DNA of 64,000 nt from Armatimonadota bacterium (lineage in GTDB: Bacteria > Armatimonadota > Fimbriimonadia > Fimbriimonadales > ATM1), in contig JAJPJR010000040.1 of NCBI GenBank assembly GCA_021324165.1, forward strand, positions 62,001-126,000. The letters are read 5' to 3'. Position 1 is the stretch's first letter, and every line of letters begins with the position of its first letter. The notes under the pieces were generated by a model, which saw nothing but the letters and a program-made list of their open reading frames with translations, did not search any database and was not told where the DNA came from. Shown piece by piece: positions 4,701 to 11,699 of this stretch. Position numbers and translations under genes: made by a program.

Positions 4701-4739
4701 TATAACCCAATTGTCGGTAGAAAAGTTCCCAAAGGTTCA

Positions 4740-4910
4740 GTGAGCCGACAGCCGTGATTGTCCAGATTTTGTGGGTTTTTTTGATCGTATGCCTTAGAAA
4801 CTCTCGAAAAAAAAAGGCTGGAAGGCGATGTTTTAGTGCTGCTGGCGGCTGTTTTTTTCAGTCTTGAAGTTGGATTTTGAGCCCGAAATAGGGTGTTTAG
4901 GGTAGGGTAG
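4740..4910 (+). promoter_or_regulatory. Putative CRISPR leader
   Basis: Non-coding stretch immediately upstream of the first CRISPR repeat, with runs of T and A (near 4777, 4808 and 4852) and lower GC than its surroundings. No ORF is supported. The repeats are oriented with their ATTGCAAC end to the right, and the degenerate repeat is at the far right end of the array. Both place the leader here. Boundaries are approximate. Confidence 0.55.
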
Positions 4911-5012
4911 GTTGTGTCTCCCGGTCAAACGGGGGCCGATTGCAACGATGTATTCATTTTTCATTCTATCCTCCTGGTTGTGTCTCCCGGTCAAACGGGG
5001 GCCGATTGCAAC
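4911..5012 (+). CRISPR. CRISPR array, leader-proximal part (2 repeats, 1 spacer)
   Basis: Two identical 36-bp repeats (4911-4946 and 4977-5012) flank one 30-bp spacer (4947-4976). The repeat begins GTTGTGTCTCCCGG, has a CCCG/CGGG stem around GTCAAA and ends GATTGCAAC, similar to the ATTGAAAC-type 5' handles of type III and type I crRNAs. The same repeat recurs at 6866-7231. The 1,853 bases between the two blocks are RHS-type coding DNA. Confidence 0.97.
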
Positions 5013-5088
5013 GGAGTCGCATAGAGCCAGGCGGATCGCTAACGACGCTCATTAATGACGGTGCGTACATAATCGAGGAAAGAAGCTG

Positions 5089-6204
5089 ATGGCGGTCACG
5101 ACGTATCGGTACAACGTTCCGGGAAACCTCGCGATGGAGAATCGCGGTGGAACGAAAAGCGCGTACCGTTTCGACGCAAGGGGCAGCACGACTCAGCTCA
5201 TCAACACGAGCGCAACGGTCACGGATACCTTTCAGTTCGACTCGTTTGGAAATCAGGTCTCAAGAACTGGAACGACAGCAACACCATTCACGTTTATGGC
5301 TGGCATTTCGATGTATATGCCAAGCGGCATTTCTCCGGTGTTTGGTGTCTTCGGACCGCTCAGATGGGATCCAAAAACTGGAGGGTTTACGAACGCAGGG
5401 GACGCGATTGCTGGTTGGATGCTGTGGCAGATGTGGCAGGTGCGACTGGCGCTTCTCAGAGCTGAGCTAAACCGGCTGTTCCCGTGGGGGCTTTTACCGG
5501 GATGGCCCTGGCTCGAAATAATCGGCGTGGGCCGGGGGTACCGAACACCAACCCCGCGAGTCGCTCCGCCGATTCCGGTTCAGCCGTCTCCCGGCCCTAT
5601 TCCGCCGCCGCGCAGAGTTTCCCCGCCCTCTAATCCCGCGCCGCGCAGACGTGGTCCGATCGGGCCACGCCCTGCGAGCCGAACGGTTGGAGGGCGATGC
5701 GGAGAGAGTGATCCAATCGGTGCCTTTCAAGGATTTTTGGTTCTGTTCGCTGGAATCGCAAAGTGCACGATCGGGGTGATTTGTGACCCAGCAGGCTGGA
5801 CAATAGACGCATTCGAGATCCTATGGAATTGGGTGGTTTACGATGAACTTCCGGGCGGCGATGCGTGCGAGCTTGGGGCAGACATCGGCTTAAACAGAGC
5901 AGAAGAATCGTTCGAAGAGCAATTTGCTGGCAAAGTCGGTTACGTCGGCGGCAAGTTGCTTGACATCCATTGTTTTGTGAAAACAGTGTCGGATGCCAAG
6001 AAGGCTGCTGGGGCAGTTCCCTCCACTTATGTGGGTTGTAACTACGCTTGCAACTGCGACCAGTGCTGTGCCGACATGTGTAACCAGGACGGTTCATACC
6101 CCATGACAAAGTGGTACAGGTGCGTAACAGCATGCACAAAAGAATGTTGCCCTGGAGATGACGCCGCCATGTTCCCTGTACCTCGGAACGCAGGAGTACA
6201 ATGA
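5089..6204 (+). CDS. RHS-repeat core protein with cysteine-rich C-terminal tip
   Basis: A 371-residue 5'-truncated RHS-type protein. Residues 1-70 match the RHS-associated core (TYRYNVPGNLA, AYRFDARGSTTQLI, DSFGNQVSRTG). After a hydrophobic stretch (about 105-145) comes a proline-rich linker (about 153-200) and a unique tip (205-371) with ten cysteines between 317 and 354. In RHS polymorphic toxins the region after the core is the variable toxin. No toxin family is recognised here; the cysteines may bind metal or form disulfides. A GAGGAAAG site precedes the ATG, so the fragment could be translated alone. Upstream RHS sequence is missing or frameshifted (TGA at 5056 in this frame). Its stop overlaps the next start. 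Confidence 0.65.
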   Translation: MAVTTYRYNVPGNLAMENRGGTKSAYRFDARGSTTQLINTSATVTDTFQFDSFGNQVSRTGTTATPFTFMAGISMYMPSGISPVFGVFGPLRWDPKTGGFTNAGDAIAGWMLWQMWQVRLALLRAELNRLFPWGLLPGWPWLEIIGVGRGYRTPTPRVAPPIPVQPSPGPIPPPRRVSPPSNPAPRRRGPIGPRPASRTVGGRCGESDPIGAFQGFLVLFAGIAKCTIGVICDPAGWTIDAFEILWNWVVYDELPGGDACELGADIGLNRAEESFEEQFAGKVGYVGGKLLDIHCFVKTVSDAKKAAGAVPSTYVGCNYACNCDQCCADMCNQDGSYPMTKWYRCVTACTKECCPGDDAAMFPVPRNAGVQ

Positions 6205-6653
6205 GGACGTTTCTGATTCTTCTCGTTGTTGGTGCGGTTTGCGTGAGTTCGTGCACATCAAAGGGGGGCTTGGAATCAAAAGGAACCGGGGGCCAAGATA
6301 TTCAACCCGCCCTTCCAGCGCCCATTCGCGATGGAACAGTGTTGATCACTATCCCAGCGACGTACATTTCGTCCGGCGGCAAAGAAACCCTAGTGTGGGT
6401 GCCACAACCTTACGAGCAGGTTAAGCGCAAGTTCGACGAAAGTACTGCGGCGGTGAGAACTCCCGCACCGACCGGCGCCCAGCAATTCGAATTTAGCACA
6501 TACAAACTCGAATCTGGAAGAACTATGGCGGCCGTTATGTCGGTCAATCATTTCCACAAGTTTTGGAACGACGCCGACCCACGAGAAGTTGACGTCGCTA
6601 AGACCAAAAGTACAGGAACTTTCATTGTTCTAACACAACTCAATGGCGGTTGA
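6201..6653 (+). CDS. Small lipoprotein, candidate immunity partner of the RHS tip
   Basis: A 150-residue protein with a lipoprotein signal (hydrophobic 3-14, lipobox VSSC with Cys18), then a Gly/Ser linker and a mature domain (about 45-150) that I do not recognise. Its ATG overlaps the RHS stop as ATGA, so the two genes are translationally coupled. In RHS loci the gene directly after the toxin tip is normally the immunity gene, and envelope immunity proteins are often lipoproteins. The role is therefore inferred from position only. Confidence 0.6.
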   Translation: MRTFLILLVVGAVCVSSCTSKGGLESKGTGGQDIQPALPAPIRDGTVLITIPATYISSGGKETLVWVPQPYEQVKRKFDESTAAVRTPAPTGAQQFEFSTYKLESGRTMAAVMSVNHFHKFWNDADPREVDVAKTKSTGTFIVLTQLNGG

Positions 6654-6865
6654 ACAAATTGCTCAAAACTCTGCTGCCACTGATTCGCGTGGAAAAGTCA
6701 CCACCAACACCTACGACACGCTCAATCGCCTGCAAACCAGCACCGATCCGCTCAGCCGCAAAACAACCTACACCTACGACGCCGGGGATCATGTGGTCAG
6801 CATCACCAACCCGATGGGCGAGCAGACGCAGTATATTTACGACGGATGTTTGCTGCAGCAGGCGG
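6643..6865 (+). pseudogene. RHS YD-repeat fragment ending at the CRISPR repeat
   Basis: The frame encodes YD-repeat units (TNTYDTLNRLQTSTDPL, TTYTYDAGDHVVSITNPMG and QYIYDG) typical of the RHS shell, then runs straight into the CRISPR repeat at 6866, where the meaningful sequence ends. It has no start of its own; the nominal ATG overlaps the lipoprotein's end. YD repeats normally lie upstream of the core, so here the RHS parts are out of order (core, tip, lipoprotein, YD). This suggests rearrangement, or the start of a next, truncated RHS unit. Confidence 0.7.
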
Positions 6866-7231
6866 GTTGTGTCTCCCGGTCAAACGGGGGCCGATTGCAA
6901 CGCCTGCTTTGATGCCCGCGCCTGCTTTGATGTTGTGTCTCCCGGTCAAACGGGGGCCGATTGCAACTGTGGCCTTTGGAACCTGCGCCAATGTTTTGTT
7001 GTGTCTCCCGGTCAAACGGGGGCCGATTGCAACTTTGCGCCCCTCATATTGTCAACAGATTGCGTTGTGTCTCCCGGTCAAACGGGGGCCGATTGCAACC
7101 CTTATACTCTGCATCAATAAAATCACTGGGTTGTGTCTCCCGGTCAAACGGGGGCCGATTGCAACTTGCGTCCAGATTTCCTTATAGCAACGCCTGTTGT
7201 GTCTCCCGGTCAAACGGGGGCCGATTGAGGC
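6866..7231 (+). CRISPR. CRISPR array, leader-distal part (6 repeats, 5 spacers)
   Basis: 36-bp repeats start at 6866, 6932, 6998, 7064, 7130 and 7196, with five spacers all exactly 30 bp. The sixth repeat keeps about 31 bases, then changes from TTGCAAC to TTGAGG, the decay expected at the leader-distal end. The sequence matches the block at 4911-5012. Spacer 6902-6931 is internally repeated (GCCTGCTTTGAT twice). The 66-bp period is divisible by three, which creates long spurious open frames here. The array and the cas operon converge. Confidence 0.98.
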
Positions 7232-7240
7232 TTTTGGAGT

Positions 7241-7260
7241 GCGCGAAGCTTGCTTCGCGC
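7241..7260. terminator. Hairpin between array end and cas operon end
   Basis: GCGCGAAGC and GCTTCGCGC form a nine-base perfect stem around TT. It lies between the last CRISPR repeat and the stop of the convergent cas operon, so it could end transcription from either side. No strong T-run follows. Nothing else is seen in 7232-7331. Confidence 0.5.
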
Positions 7261-7331: not shown

Positions 7332-7937
7332 TCAGCTGCCGCGTCGTGCTTGGCCAACAATGCTCGCTTCGATCTTTACTTCCAACCCGCTGTTCTTGCT
7401 GCCAAACCACCAAATTCCACAAAGGTTCTTCAAAAGGAACAGGTTCAGCAACTGTTCAGAATTAAACTTCGTCACCCAAGGATCAACTTCAACGTTCCCG
7501 ATCCGCCTGCTTTTTCCAAACTCCCATCCAGTCAGGCTGTCCTTCCACAAAACCGAAATCTCTCCTTGGAACCTTCCGCCCATCTTCTTCAACATTCCTA
7601 CCGACACAAACCCGACTAAACCTTGCGCCCCGAACAGATAGCAGCAGGGGCACACTTCGTTTGGGTTTTGCTCATCGAATGCGCACACCGGCTTCAATTC
7701 AAGTGCTCTCTCATCGTCAGTGAGTGAGTTCGCGTCTGCCGGAATGCAAGCGCGCCGCAGCCACGATAGGCCGCGTTTCTTTTGCAGTTCGGCTAAGTAC
7801 AGTTCGACCGACGATCGCAGCGCGCCCTTCAGCGTCGAGCCCGGGATGCAATCACGCCCGTTGACTCTTTGAATGATGTTGTTGGGCAATGGTCCGACTG
7901 CGGAAACAGTAACGTTAATCCGACGAGGTTCAATCAT
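7332..7937 (-). CDS. cas7: Type III CRISPR Cas7-family RAMP protein, probable non-catalytic copy
   Basis: A 201-residue Cas7 (Csm3/Cmr4-like) RAMP backbone subunit. It shows the IPGSTLKGALR loop (about 31-41) and CPCCYLFGAQGLVGFV (about 96-111), closely resembling the neighbouring Cas7. Where Csm3-type proteins have GGID and the neighbour has GGVDNP (catalytic aspartate for target RNA cleavage), this copy reads GPLPNNI, so it probably lacks that RNase activity. Last gene of the cas operon; its ATG overlaps the previous stop as ATGA. The subtype of this Cas7 is not resolved. Confidence 0.88.
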   Translation of the reverse strand: MIEPRRINVTVSAVGPLPNNIIQRVNGRDCIPGSTLKGALRSSVELYLAELQKKRGLSWLRRACIPADANSLTDDERALELKPVCAFDEQNPNEVCPCCYLFGAQGLVGFVSVGMLKKMGGRFQGEISVLWKDSLTGWEFGKSRRIGNVEVDPWVTKFNSEQLLNLFLLKNLCGIWWFGSKNSGLEVKIEASIVGQARRGS

Positions 7938-8662
7938 TGTTCTGTGATTTCGACTTTTACTTCGCCAAAGCCTTTCGACTTATATCCACCGATCATCTTG
8001 ATGCTCTGCAGCCGCTTTACCACCAACTCTTCAAGGATCTGTTCTTGGGACTTATCTTTGAAAGGTTCGCAGGTGAGCCACAAGTCCACCTGCCCTTCTT
8101 TTACCCGCCTTGGCTTACCGAACGTCCACCCGCTGGGCGTTTCCAAATCAACGGTAACGTTTCCCGTAAACTGTGTGCCGGGAGCAGCGAATTGATAGGA
8201 TCGGTTGGCGCCTTTCGCCACGGTCGCCGTTGCACGATCAATCCGCGCGGAATACAAGGTTTGCGGGCGGCTTTGCTTTTCGGCAAAAAGAAAAGGTACA
8301 GAAACAAAACCAACTAACCCTTGGGCGCCCAAAATGTAACATACTGGACAGATTGAATTGCCATCAATTTTGCAGGCCTCCTTACGATATCTGGGCGCCG
8401 AACCTTTTTCTGCATCGGAAGGATTAGGAGATGCCAGGCAGGGACAAAGATTTTCCCAACCGTCTTCACTGTCTTCATTGCGACATTGTTCGAACAGATA
8501 CCGTTCCAGTTGGTATCGGTACGCTCCTTTTAGGCTCGGGCCGGGAATGCACATTCTGTCGCCCACCATGGCGATCGGATTGTCAACTCCTCCAAGCGGT
8601 TCGTCCATTCCGCCGATACGGATCGGGCTTACTGCGGTCAAGGTTATGCGATATGTTTTCAT
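7934..8662 (-). CDS. cas7: Type III CRISPR Cas7-family RAMP protein, Csm3-like, catalytic Asp retained
   Basis: A 242-residue Cas7 subunit that would line the crRNA and cut bound target RNA. It has GGVDNP (Asp27, aligning by eye with the Csm3 catalytic aspartate), IPGPSLKGAYR (about 39-49), a cysteine cluster from CPCLASP to CPVCYILGAQGLVGFV, and the C-terminal GGYKSKGFGEV loop. I chose the ATG at 8662 because GGAGG lies eight bases upstream and the codon overlaps the cas11 stop (ATGA); an in-frame ATG at 8677 has no such support. Confidence 0.9.
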   Translation of the reverse strand: MKTYRITLTAVSPIRIGGMDEPLGGVDNPIAMVGDRMCIPGPSLKGAYRYQLERYLFEQCRNEDSEDGWENLCPCLASPNPSDAEKGSAPRYRKEACKIDGNSICPVCYILGAQGLVGFVSVPFLFAEKQSRPQTLYSARIDRATATVAKGANRSYQFAAPGTQFTGNVTVDLETPSGWTFGKPRRVKEGQVDLWLTCEPFKDKSQEQILEELVVKRLQSIKMIGGYKSKGFGEVKVEITEQ

Positions 8663-8943
8663 CTTTGAATCCTCCATGCATCGAACGATTTGATAATCAG
8701 TCTTCCAATTTCGGGAGAGCGTTCGATCTCCGGCGACGCCTGTAACGCCTTGATGATCGTCTTCCCAAACTCTTTATCTTTGCGCCCTCTGGCTCTTGAT
8801 GCATCCAGCCTTCTTAGCGTTTCCTCGGGCCCGAAGAGCACAAACGCATCGCCAAGTTCATTCAGGAACTTGGCCGAAAACCTTGCTTCGCGAAAGTTCG
8901 ATCGAAGATCCGCTTGGATCTCTCTTATGCACTCATCGAACAT
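8659..8943 (-). CDS. cas11: Type III CRISPR small subunit (Cas11-like)
   Basis: A 94-residue, apparently all-helical basic protein between the cas5- and cas7-type genes, the place and size of Csm2/Cmr5 small subunits that form the inner filament of type III complexes. Sequence alone is too diverged for a family call, so identity rests on size, predicted helicity and operon position. AAGGAG lies seven bases before the ATG. It overlaps cas5 by 11 bases and cas7 by 4, consistent with translational coupling. Confidence 0.7.
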   Translation of the reverse strand: MFDECIREIQADLRSNFREARFSAKFLNELGDAFVLFGPEETLRRLDASRARGRKDKEFGKTIIKALQASPEIERSPEIGRLIIKSFDAWRIQR

Positions 8944-9883
8944 CCGTTTCTCCTTCGCCCAGAGCGGGCAGGCATTTGATGATGGCGGCGCCTATCGAGC
9001 GCTCCGCCGAAAGTTGCTGTTTGAACTGTTTCAACGCATCCAGCACATTGAGCAAAACCTGCGCGCCATTTCGCGTTCTGGTTTGATTCTGCTTGGTGAG
9101 CAGATACAGCCGCGTCACTTCAAAACCGTATTGCTCGAACACCTGGGCGGTATTGTTGCGAAAACTCGAACCAGGGCACCGTCTTCCACTGATGGCCCCC
9201 ACAACCGCTTTCAAGATCGGCGCAACATCGTCGGTCTTTTTTGGGCTCTCTGCATCTTGACTCAAAAGAAAGTGATGCGCCGCAACTTCGCTTCCTTCGA
9301 GCAGCGCGCGTTCATAATGCCCATGCTTCCCATGATCAGGAACGAACAGGTAACCGTATCGTGGATGGATGACATTTCTAATCCCCCATTGTTCAAGTGC
9401 CTTCTGGTCATGCAAACACCGAACGGCCAAATCACCTACCTCGGGATTGCCAGGATCAATGCTGGTTTCTTCCAAAGTCACCCGGCAGCGCCCAAAACCG
9501 CTCGATTTCATCCCGCCAAGCTGCAGTTCGAATTCCTCGGGCATTTCTTTGCACGTGAAATCGTTCAGCTGCAAGTGCATTTCGGCTTTAACATCAGCCA
9601 GGTATTCGATCTGCAAAGGCACTTTGCTCACGTTGTGCACCCGATCTCGCGGCGAATAGACTAGTGATTCGGCACGGAAGCTGATAAATCGAGCCGACGC
9701 TACGAATGGACGGTAGTGAGCGGGAAATCTGGCGTTCAATGCTCCAACCAGGCTCGTTGTGGTGAACACTTTCAGGCAAGGTCGAAATGTGGATGCACGC
9801 ATACGCTCCCCCAAGCAGAGCAGATCAACTTCGAGTGAGTACCGCGCATACCGAATACCGTTTTCCTGTTGGTATTTATCCAT
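8933..9883 (-). CDS. cas5: Type III CRISPR Cas5-family RAMP protein (Csm4/Cmr3/Csx10-like)
   Basis: A 316-residue RAMP protein next to cas10. In type III complexes Cas5 caps the backbone and holds the crRNA 5' handle beside Cas10. The first half has RAMP-like strands (RYSLEVDLLCLGE, TTSLVGALNARF) and the glycine-rich loop LGGMKSSGFGRCRV (about 120-133). The second half is unassigned. I chose the ATG at 9883: AAAGGAG lies upstream and the codon overlaps the cas10 stop by eight bases. The longer frame from 9949 lies inside cas10. Confidence 0.82.
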   Translation of the reverse strand: MDKYQQENGIRYARYSLEVDLLCLGERMRASTFRPCLKVFTTTSLVGALNARFPAHYRPFVASARFISFRAESLVYSPRDRVHNVSKVPLQIEYLADVKAEMHLQLNDFTCKEMPEEFELQLGGMKSSGFGRCRVTLEETSIDPGNPEVGDLAVRCLHDQKALEQWGIRNVIHPRYGYLFVPDHGKHGHYERALLEGSEVAAHHFLLSQDAESPKKTDDVAPILKAVVGAISGRRCPGSSFRNNTAQVFEQYGFEVTRLYLLTKQNQTRTRNGAQVLLNVLDALKQFKQQLSAERSIGAAIIKCLPALGEGETDVR

Positions 9884-11699
9884 CTTTGCTCCTTTTGTCA
9901 GAGAGATTGACCAAAACTTTTGCGGTTTCAAACGAAAGTTGTCCTTCATTTAGCAAAGTTCCGAGTTCTGTGTCGCAAGTATCCTTGTTTTTCATCACCA
10001 GTTTAGCCAGCGATTCAGAACGATTTGCAACGGATGCAAGCAGATGGACGGCGTGAGCCTTCATGCTGCTGATGGCGTTGAGTACTTTCTCGGCGTCTTT
10101 GATCTTCAAGGAAGCCGTACCGCTTGCCACGAGGTTAATAATGAGTTCATCGGAAGGGTTTTCCAAATACCGCCAATGGTCAAAAAACGGATGCTTCGCG
10201 TTGGACACGGAAAGTCCAAATCGGATCGGACACTCAATGTCGCCGATCAGTTTTGGAAAGCTGTTCTTCATTTCATTGCAGATTCGTCGCAGGATGAAAT
10301 TCACTTTCGTTCGGTCATCATGCAAATGGCAGCACCACAACCATGGCGCGTTGTTCGTGGCCGCAACTTGTTGAACGCAGTCGACTGTCAAGAGGTCTAT
10401 GAGCATTTTGTTAACCGAGTCTAAGAAGCAGGAATAGTCCGTCAAAAAATCAACGACTGTTGGAATCGGCACATACAGGTTGTTACCGAGTCCTTCATTC
10501 GGCGTCTTTAGTTTGCTTTCAAGGTATTCCTTATGGAGATACGTGAGGGACGAGTGTAGTTGATTCAAATCTAAGTGCGTCCGCACCCAGACGACCGATC
10601 CCGTCTGCCAGTTCTGCAGTTTGGTGAGCGAGAGTGCTTGCTCGCGAATCTCGTAACAATCTTCACAAAGATCTTCTTGCGGTTCTTCCGGCATGCGGCG
10701 CTGCGGCCACACTTTGTCTGCGTGTGCCGCCTGGCAGTTTTCGCAGATCGGCAAGTCAATCCTCTCAGCAGGCTCTGATTCGCACAATCTTCGGTCGGAT
10801 TGTGCGAGTGTTTCAAGCGGAGACTGATTGCTTTGAAGTGATCCCAGTTGCCAATTACCCTCCATGACAAACGGACGCAACTTTTCGCGAAACATTTCGA
10901 TGAGTTTTTCGTTCTCGTACACAACAATCATCTGGTTTTCCACAACAGCCAGCACATGATCAGGAAACTCTTTGCGGGTTTCCTCGATGCGTTGCGCAAC
11001 AGCCGCGAACACGCCAAGATCGCGGGCTCGATAAGGCCGCTGTTTGAATGCCGCCTCGATCCGCGCAGCCCAAAGCCTCATCCCGCCTGCAAGTGGGTTG
11101 ATATCGCGCCATTCTGCTCCGGCCTTGACAGCGGACCAGTCCATTTTGGCGATCACGCGCGCCAGCTTGCCAGCAACTTCAGAATGCGCCAGCAAAGTTG
11201 TAACATTCATTCCGCCGCGGCGTATCTCCGGTCGAGATAACAGGTGTGATTTGTACTTTTCTTTGGTTTCGTCCCAACTAGGATCCTTGTTGAGAAACTG
11301 AATGAGATCTTTGAGGTCACTTTTTGTGGTGATGAAGGTAGTTCTGCGACATTTGTTTGTCCACAGGCAGTAGTAGTGATACTCTGGATCCGCATTAACT
11401 TGGTGTTCGGGCACCGTTCTGCCGAAGCCTGCCGCCAGGTGGTCTGCGAAACTCACGAAGAGCCAAGCGTTGGAGTCCTTGTAATGTTTTTCCAGGAGCT
11501 CGGTGTTCTTTCTGGAAATGCATCGCCAGCACGCGTTGCTATCCAGGCGCAGGTCCCACTGATCGGGATGTTTGAGGCATTTCTCGAACTCGTGCGGGTC
11601 TGGCTCAGATGTCTCTCGCAACCCAACCGCTGTCCAATCAACGATCTTGCCGATGTCGTGGAAGTCGGCCTTCGGGTCGTCTGGCGTGCTCTCTTTCAC
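9876..11699 (-). CDS. cas10: Cas10-like type III large subunit with HD motif but no GGDD motif
   Basis: A 607-residue diverged Cas10. The N-terminal HD nuclease part shows DFHDIGK (His14, Asp15) and FADHLAA (84-90), a typical Cas10 pairing. A zinc ribbon has CENC (319-322) and CEDC (345-348). The palm region keeps FGLSVSNAKHPFFDHW (494-509), like the segment after the active site in other Cas10s, but GGDD is absent; the aligned spot seems to read LHDD (459-462). DNA cleavage may thus be kept and cyclic-oligoadenylate synthesis lost, as described for subtypes III-C and III-F. An upstream in-frame stop at 11706-11708 fixes GTG 11699 as the start. It is shorter than most Cas10s and heads a five-gene coupled operon. 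Confidence 0.85.
   Translation of the reverse strand: MKESTPDDPKADFHDIGKIVDWTAVGLRETSEPDPHEFEKCLKHPDQWDLRLDSNACWRCISRKNTELLEKHYKDSNAWLFVSFADHLAAGFGRTVPEHQVNADPEYHYYCLWTNKCRRTTFITTKSDLKDLIQFLNKDPSWDETKEKYKSHLLSRPEIRRGGMNVTTLLAHSEVAGKLARVIAKMDWSAVKAGAEWRDINPLAGGMRLWAARIEAAFKQRPYRARDLGVFAAVAQRIEETRKEFPDHVLAVVENQMIVVYENEKLIEMFREKLRPFVMEGNWQLGSLQSNQSPLETLAQSDRRLCESEPAERIDLPICENCQAAHADKVWPQRRMPEEPQEDLCEDCYEIREQALSLTKLQNWQTGSVVWVRTHLDLNQLHSSLTYLHKEYLESKLKTPNEGLGNNLYVPIPTVVDFLTDYSCFLDSVNKMLIDLLTVDCVQQVAATNNAPWLWCCHLHDDRTKVNFILRRICNEMKNSFPKLIGDIECPIRFGLSVSNAKHPFFDHWRYLENPSDELIINLVASGTASLKIKDAEKVLNAISSMKAHAVHLLASVANRSESLAKLVMKNKDTCDTELGTLLNEGQLSFETAKVLVNLSDKRSKDG

What the first reader, a model, noticed from the sequence alone, without database searches (positions are those of the whole stretch)
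5013..6865. RHS toxin cassette seated exactly between two intact CRISPR repeats
The sequence shows identical 36-bp repeats ending at 5012 and starting at 6866, with 1,853 bp of RHS core, tip, lipoprotein and YD fragment between them, where a 30-bp spacer should be. There is a leader-like region only on the left and a degenerate terminal repeat only on the right, so the two blocks look like one array that was split. The RHS parts are out of order (core-tip-lipoprotein-YD), as if a circular or recombined RHS fragment had been captured. Either DNA was inserted into a spacer, or two RHS-linked arrays recombined.
Basis: partly seen in the sequence, partly recalled or inferred. Interest (0 to 1): 0.72.

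Follow-up and report, generated by a model that had tools for sequence, protein, structure and literature searches.

The report
RHS fragment interrupting a CRISPR array
A 1.85-kb piece of a bacterial toxin-type (RHS) locus sits where a 30-base spacer should be in a rare type III-F CRISPR array; it most likely got there by accidental recombination, but capture of a very long piece of DNA by the CRISPR integrase, or an assembly error, cannot be excluded.

Summary
Seven identical 36-bp repeats plus a degenerate eighth lie at 4911-7231, every spacer but one is exactly 30 bp, and 1,853 bp of RHS-type DNA lies between the intact repeats ending at 5012 and starting at 6866. Leader-like side and degenerate terminal repeat lie on opposite sides, so this is one interrupted array, beside a type III-F cas operon (7332-11699). 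The repeat occurs nowhere else in the genome or in 290 other genomes of the phylum. The insert is not 'out of order' and needs no circle: YD end, TGATG-coupled tip ORF, lipoprotein, then the next truncated RHS core piece is the layout of tandem RHS loci. It carries no transposase, inverted repeats or second leader. RHS homology reaches to about 14 nt from the left repeat and 4 nt from the right, so no full split spacer remains. At the right end, the sequence with which RHS genes normally continue resembles the first 12 bp of the repeat, which favours microhomology-mediated insertion. Cas1-Cas2 capture of a kilobase 'spacer' is the interesting rival; the only Cas1 found lies beside a cas9 with a different repeat. 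Reads were not available, so misassembly remains open.

The parts
4711..4910 (+). leader-like AT-richer flank of the array; it also holds the upstream region of dnaK
   Evidence: 44.5% GC with A and T runs
4911..5012 (+). left block of the array: two intact 36-bp repeats and one 30-bp spacer (4947-4976)
5013..6865 (+). 1,853-bp RHS-derived insert in the place of a spacer
5015..5089 (+). last codons of an RHS YD frame (SRIEPGGSLTTLINDGAYIIEERS), ending in a TGA that overlaps the ATG of the tip ORF (TGATG)
   Evidence: 54% identity over 24 aa to G021, which has the same junction
5089..6204 (+). RHS tip ORF, 371 aa; RHS-like N-terminal ~110 aa, cysteine-rich C-terminus of unknown family
   Evidence: 37-49% identity over the first ~80-110 aa to tips of relatives; no Pfam, NCBIfam or PADLOC match
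6201..6653 (+). lipoprotein-like ORF, 150 aa, overlapping the end of the tip ORF; possible immunity gene, not shown
   Evidence: signal and SC motif seen directly; no homologue in 112 other genomes of the order
6676..6865 (+). 5'-truncated RHS core piece with YD repeats, cut off by the repeat
   Evidence: PF05593, E 5.9e-15; homologous stretches are always internal to long RHS frames
6866..7231 (+). right block of the array: five intact repeats, five 30-bp spacers and a degenerate terminal repeat (7196-7231)
7332..11699 (-). type III-F cas operon: two Cas7f-like ORFs (7332-7937, 7934-8677), Cas11f (8659-8943), Cas5f with a Cas11f-like C-terminus (8933-9949), Cas10f (9876-11699)
   Evidence: PADLOC models

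Best explanation
A contiguous 1.85-kb fragment of a tandem RHS locus was inserted into an existing type III-F CRISPR array by illegitimate, microhomology-assisted recombination and took the place of one spacer, or of one or more repeat-spacer units. The right crossover used the resemblance between an RHS 'VVDP' codon stretch (GTnGTGGAyCC) and the start of the repeat (GTTGTGTCTCC); the left crossover joined the end of a repeat to an RHS 'YDGDGxR' stretch. The result is one array split into a leader-proximal one-spacer block and a five-spacer block. The RHS ORFs, which lack the YD shell needed for delivery, point the same way as array transcription and are probably passengers. Shown: anatomy, single array, uniqueness, native RHS order, RHS homology to within a few nucleotides of both repeats. 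Inferred: donor sequence, route of recombination, lack of function.
For: RHS homology extends to about 4 nt from the right repeat and 14 nt from the left one. The natural RHS continuation at the right junction matches the first 12 nt of the repeat at 8 of 12 in the closest relative (reached by 0.05% of positions in the region; about 0.4% after allowing for 8 offsets), and this offset is best or tied in 6 of 7 relatives. Common RHS 'GNR' codons resemble the end of the repeat (8-9 of 12). No terminal inverted repeats and no transposase or integrase ORF inside. The order of parts is that of tandem RHS loci. Composition is typical of this genome.
Against: The donor is unknown, so the microhomology is inferred from relatives only, and it is out of register by 1-4 nt. 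The two relatives closest at the left end do not carry the GNR codons. Both joints lie at or within a few nucleotides of repeat edges, which a random event would seldom give. The assembly could not be checked with reads.
Confidence: 0.42

Rival explanations
1. Giant spacer: a Cas1-Cas2 integrase joined both ends of a 1.85-kb linear RHS fragment to the leader-end repeat and duplicated the repeat, as a casposase does with a casposon; one ordinary spacer was added afterwards at the leader.
For: Exact repeat-insert-repeat anatomy, second position from the leader, no terminal repeats needed. Casposases, homologous to Cas1, integrate long elements with target-site duplication, and it is stated to be unclear whether the two pathways are mutually exclusive (PMC6977970).
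Against: No cas1 in the III-F locus; the only Cas1 found in the genome lies beside a cas9 and an array with a different repeat. Every other spacer is exactly 30 bp. Cas1 should ignore the donor's flanking sequence, but that flank resembles the repeat.
Confidence: 0.17
2. Misassembly: the array and an RHS contig were wrongly joined in a short-read metagenome assembly.
For: The genome is in 83 contigs, and several other RHS loci lie within a few kb of contig ends. The rest of the donor RHS gene is not in the assembly.
Against: Two independent joints, each at the repeat, would be needed, and no loose copy of the repeat exists at any contig end. The insert occurs once and its composition fits the genome. 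Microhomology of 6-8 bp is too short to mislead an assembler.
Confidence: 0.25
3. Homologous recombination between CRISPR repeats: a circle or transferred segment that carried the RHS piece next to at least one copy of the same repeat integrated by crossover in the array.
For: It yields exact repeat-insert-repeat structures without any special enzyme. If the two ends of the insert are joined, the two YD pieces happen to be in frame (chance 1 in 3; from the frames).
Against: It needs an earlier event that linked RHS DNA to the repeat. No second array or repeat copy is seen in the genome, the phylum set, genome contigs or viral contigs. The circular join would not restore the usual RHS sequence.
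Confidence: 0.12

Closest known systems
Type III-F CRISPR-Cas
   Same: Cas10f, Cas5f, Cas7f and Cas11f are recognised by PADLOC; no adaptation genes in the locus.
   Different: Most III-F loci lack an array (PMC12669027); this one has an array, and it is interrupted.
Orphan RHS or CDI toxin-immunity modules (PMC3150448)
   Same: Core fragment, tip and small downstream gene in tandem, with truncated core pieces between modules.
   Different: It lies inside a CRISPR array, away from any complete RHS gene. Neither toxicity nor immunity is shown. The tip is a separate ORF coupled by TGATG.
CRISPR-Cas loci interrupted by insertion sequences (PMC10359306, PMC3839810)
   Same: Foreign DNA interrupts a CRISPR-Cas locus; IS disruption of single spacers is known in Sulfolobus.
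   Different: The insert is not a mobile element, and its ends lie at or within a few nucleotides of two repeat edges.
Casposon integration by casposase (PMC6977970)
   Same: Long DNA flanked by a direct duplication of the target.
   Different: No terminal inverted repeats, no casposon genes and no linked Cas1; the duplication is a 36-bp CRISPR repeat.

Membership tests
Type III-F CRISPR-Cas | Cas10f, Cas5f, Cas7f and Cas11f subunits in one operon | tested here: met
   Cas10a|Cas10f E 7.4e-55, Cas5_IIIf 2.9e-39, Cas7_IIIf 1.1e-56, Cas11f 4.9e-08
Type III-F CRISPR-Cas | no adaptation genes in the locus | tested here: met
   no cas1 among the ORFs scanned; single Cas1 of the genome on another contig
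CRISPR array | identical repeats with regular unique spacers | tested here: met
   7 identical repeats, 6 spacers of 30 bp, one exception of 1,853 bp
RHS / YD-repeat proteins | YD repeats (PF05593) | tested here: met
   6676-6865 piece, E 5.9e-15
RHS toxin-immunity module | recognised toxin domain in the tip and a cognate immunity protein | tested here: inconclusive
   RHS-like N-terminus, but no family match for the tip or the lipoprotein and no homologue of the lipoprotein
Transposon or IS insertion | transposase gene, terminal inverted repeats | tested here: not met
   best 15-mer match between the ends 8 of 15; no such ORF or family match
Cas1-Cas2 integration product | insert exactly between two full repeat copies | tested here: met
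Cas1-Cas2 integration product | spacer-sized insert set by the Cas1-Cas2 ruler (30 bp in this array) | tested here: not met
   1,853 bp
Cas1-Cas2 integration product | cognate Cas1 present in the genome | tested here: inconclusive
   the only Cas1 (C68) adjoins a cas9 and a different repeat; the genome is 97% complete

The most novel reading that the evidence does not exclude
Cas1-Cas2 captured a 1.85-kb linear DNA as one 'spacer', with faithful duplication of the repeat: a casposon-like reaction by a CRISPR integrase that carried a whole RHS tip and lipoprotein gene pair into an array.
Probability: 0.15. Interest if true: 0.8.

Novelty: new variant of a known kind. Interest (0 to 1): 0.4.

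Why it matters
If it is a real Cas1-type event, it would show that the spacer ruler can be bypassed and would link CRISPR adaptation to casposon-like gene capture, a point left open in the casposase literature. If it is illegitimate recombination, as seems more likely, it is a well-delimited example of RHS DNA landing inside an immune array, and a case in which array-finding programs may report two arrays instead of one.

Tried and rejected
Split spacer with all 30 bp kept: rejected, because RHS-like coding sequence leaves at most about 18 nt for it. Transposon: rejected. Circular RHS element: not needed, because the order of parts is native. Two separate arrays: only one leader-like side and one degenerate end. 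Source of the insert elsewhere in the genome: none by DNA, no other copy of the right-hand RHS type, and the other RHS loci inspected are of other kinds. Same array in relatives: repeat absent from 290 other genomes of the phylum and from genome contigs; a III-F Cas10 relative was found in one other genome of the phylum and in one genome contigs record, SKW42, with no array in the held stretch. Two spacers and the repeat gave no exact match in viral contigs. The dnaK neighbourhoods of family members show no array. Cas6 was not found with one Pfam model that has low sensitivity in the controls. Literature searches found no report of a kilobase insert exactly between two repeats, but the library lacks most subscription papers.

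Full report
Observation. The window holds seven identical 36-bp repeats and a degenerate eighth. All spacers are 30 bp, except the interval 5013-6865, which is 1,853 bp. The window is part of contig C49 of a fragmented genome of 2.33 Mb in 83 contigs. The phylum is Armatimonadota by inference: a locus with nearly the same coordinates as the only other phylum hit for Cas10 (G230) comes from a record named Armatimonadetes bacterium SKW42. The repeat occurs only here, in this genome and among 291 genomes of the phylum.

One array, not two. The AT-richer, leader-like side is on the left (44.5% GC against 57% on the right), and the only degenerate repeat is at the right end. The cas operon to the right is type III-F (Cas10f, Cas5f, Cas11f, Cas7f). 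Cas10 shows an N-terminal HD motif (HDIGK) and no GGDD motif (seen directly). Most III-F loci are said to lack arrays (PMC12669027), so this is one of the exceptions.

What the insert is. From left to right it carries the last codons of an RHS YD frame, ending in TGATG; a tip ORF of 371 aa with an RHS-like N-terminus; a lipoprotein-like ORF; and a YD piece without its beginning. The closest relatives show the same junction between the YD end and the tip ORF (TGATG, TAATG or TAA-ATG), and rows of tips roughly 1.3-2.3 kb apart occur in several genomes of the order. The order is therefore native to tandem RHS loci and matches the published layout of orphan modules (PMC3150448). That the tip is a toxin is not shown: no family matched the tip or the lipoprotein-like ORF, and the lipoprotein has no homologue in the order.

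How the ends look. At the right, the homologous piece in relatives always continues inside a long RHS frame; here recognisable RHS sequence stops about 4 nt before the repeat. At the left, RHS-like coding sequence begins within about 14 nt of the repeat. A complete split spacer is therefore excluded; up to about 18 nt of one could remain. There are no terminal inverted repeats. The rest of the donor gene is not in the assembly.

A clue to the mechanism. In relatives the sequence that follows the right-hand piece (VVDP-type codons) resembles the first 12 nt of the CRISPR repeat. In the closest relative, G003, it matches at 8 of 12, a score that 0.05% of positions in that region reach, or about 0.4% after allowing for the 8 offsets tried; this offset is best or tied in 6 of 7 relatives. 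These relatives are not independent of each other. On the left, common RHS 'GNR' codons resemble the end of the repeat (8-9 of 12), but the two relatives closest there carry other codons. The pattern fits microhomology-assisted illegitimate recombination at repeat edges better than Cas1 integration, which should not depend on the donor's flank. It is indirect: the donor is unknown and the fit is out of register by one to four bases.

Rivals. Cas1-Cas2 capture of a long DNA would give exactly this anatomy, and the casposase paper says it is not clear whether the two integration pathways exclude each other (PMC6977970). But the locus has no cas1, the genome's only detected Cas1 sits beside a cas9 and a different repeat, and every other spacer is exactly 30 bp. 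Misassembly cannot be excluded without reads. Against it, RHS DNA would still have to abut this repeat at two joints, and no loose repeat copy exists in the assembly; the insert's composition is typical of the genome (74th percentile of distance among 240 windows). Repeat-to-repeat recombination with a circle needs an earlier linkage that is nowhere seen.

Verdict. A clear arrangement in the assembly, best read as a chance insertion of RHS DNA into one type III-F array. Interest is moderate, because the alternative (capture of a kilobase by a CRISPR integrase) would be striking and can be tested.

Noticed in passing
5081-5095; relatives L018, L019, L033, L042, L043: In this order the RHS tip is often a separate ORF whose ATG overlaps or closely follows the stop of the YD frame (TGATG, TAATG, TAA-ATG), as if shell and tip were translationally coupled rather than fused.
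   Followed up: partly
8659-9949: The Cas5f ORF carries a Cas11f-like C-terminus (residues 262-328) although a separate Cas11f ORF follows it, so the small subunit seems duplicated.
   Followed up: no
L059 259-6923: In Armatimonadetes SKW42 the III-F operon lies beside genes that look like a type I cas7, a cas4 and a cas1 (read from the translations), possibly the partner that supplies adaptation there.
   Followed up: no
L052 1-5798 (G000:C68): The same genome has a second system: cas9, cas1 and an array of at least 20 repeats with a different 36-bp repeat, at a contig end.
   Followed up: partly
7230-7260; G000:C49:131097-131127 and C60:7690-7717: A short sequence just after the array (AGGCTTTTGGAGTGCGCGAAGCTTGCTTCGC) recurs at 90% identity or more elsewhere in the genome; possibly a dispersed hairpin or terminator.
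   Followed up: no
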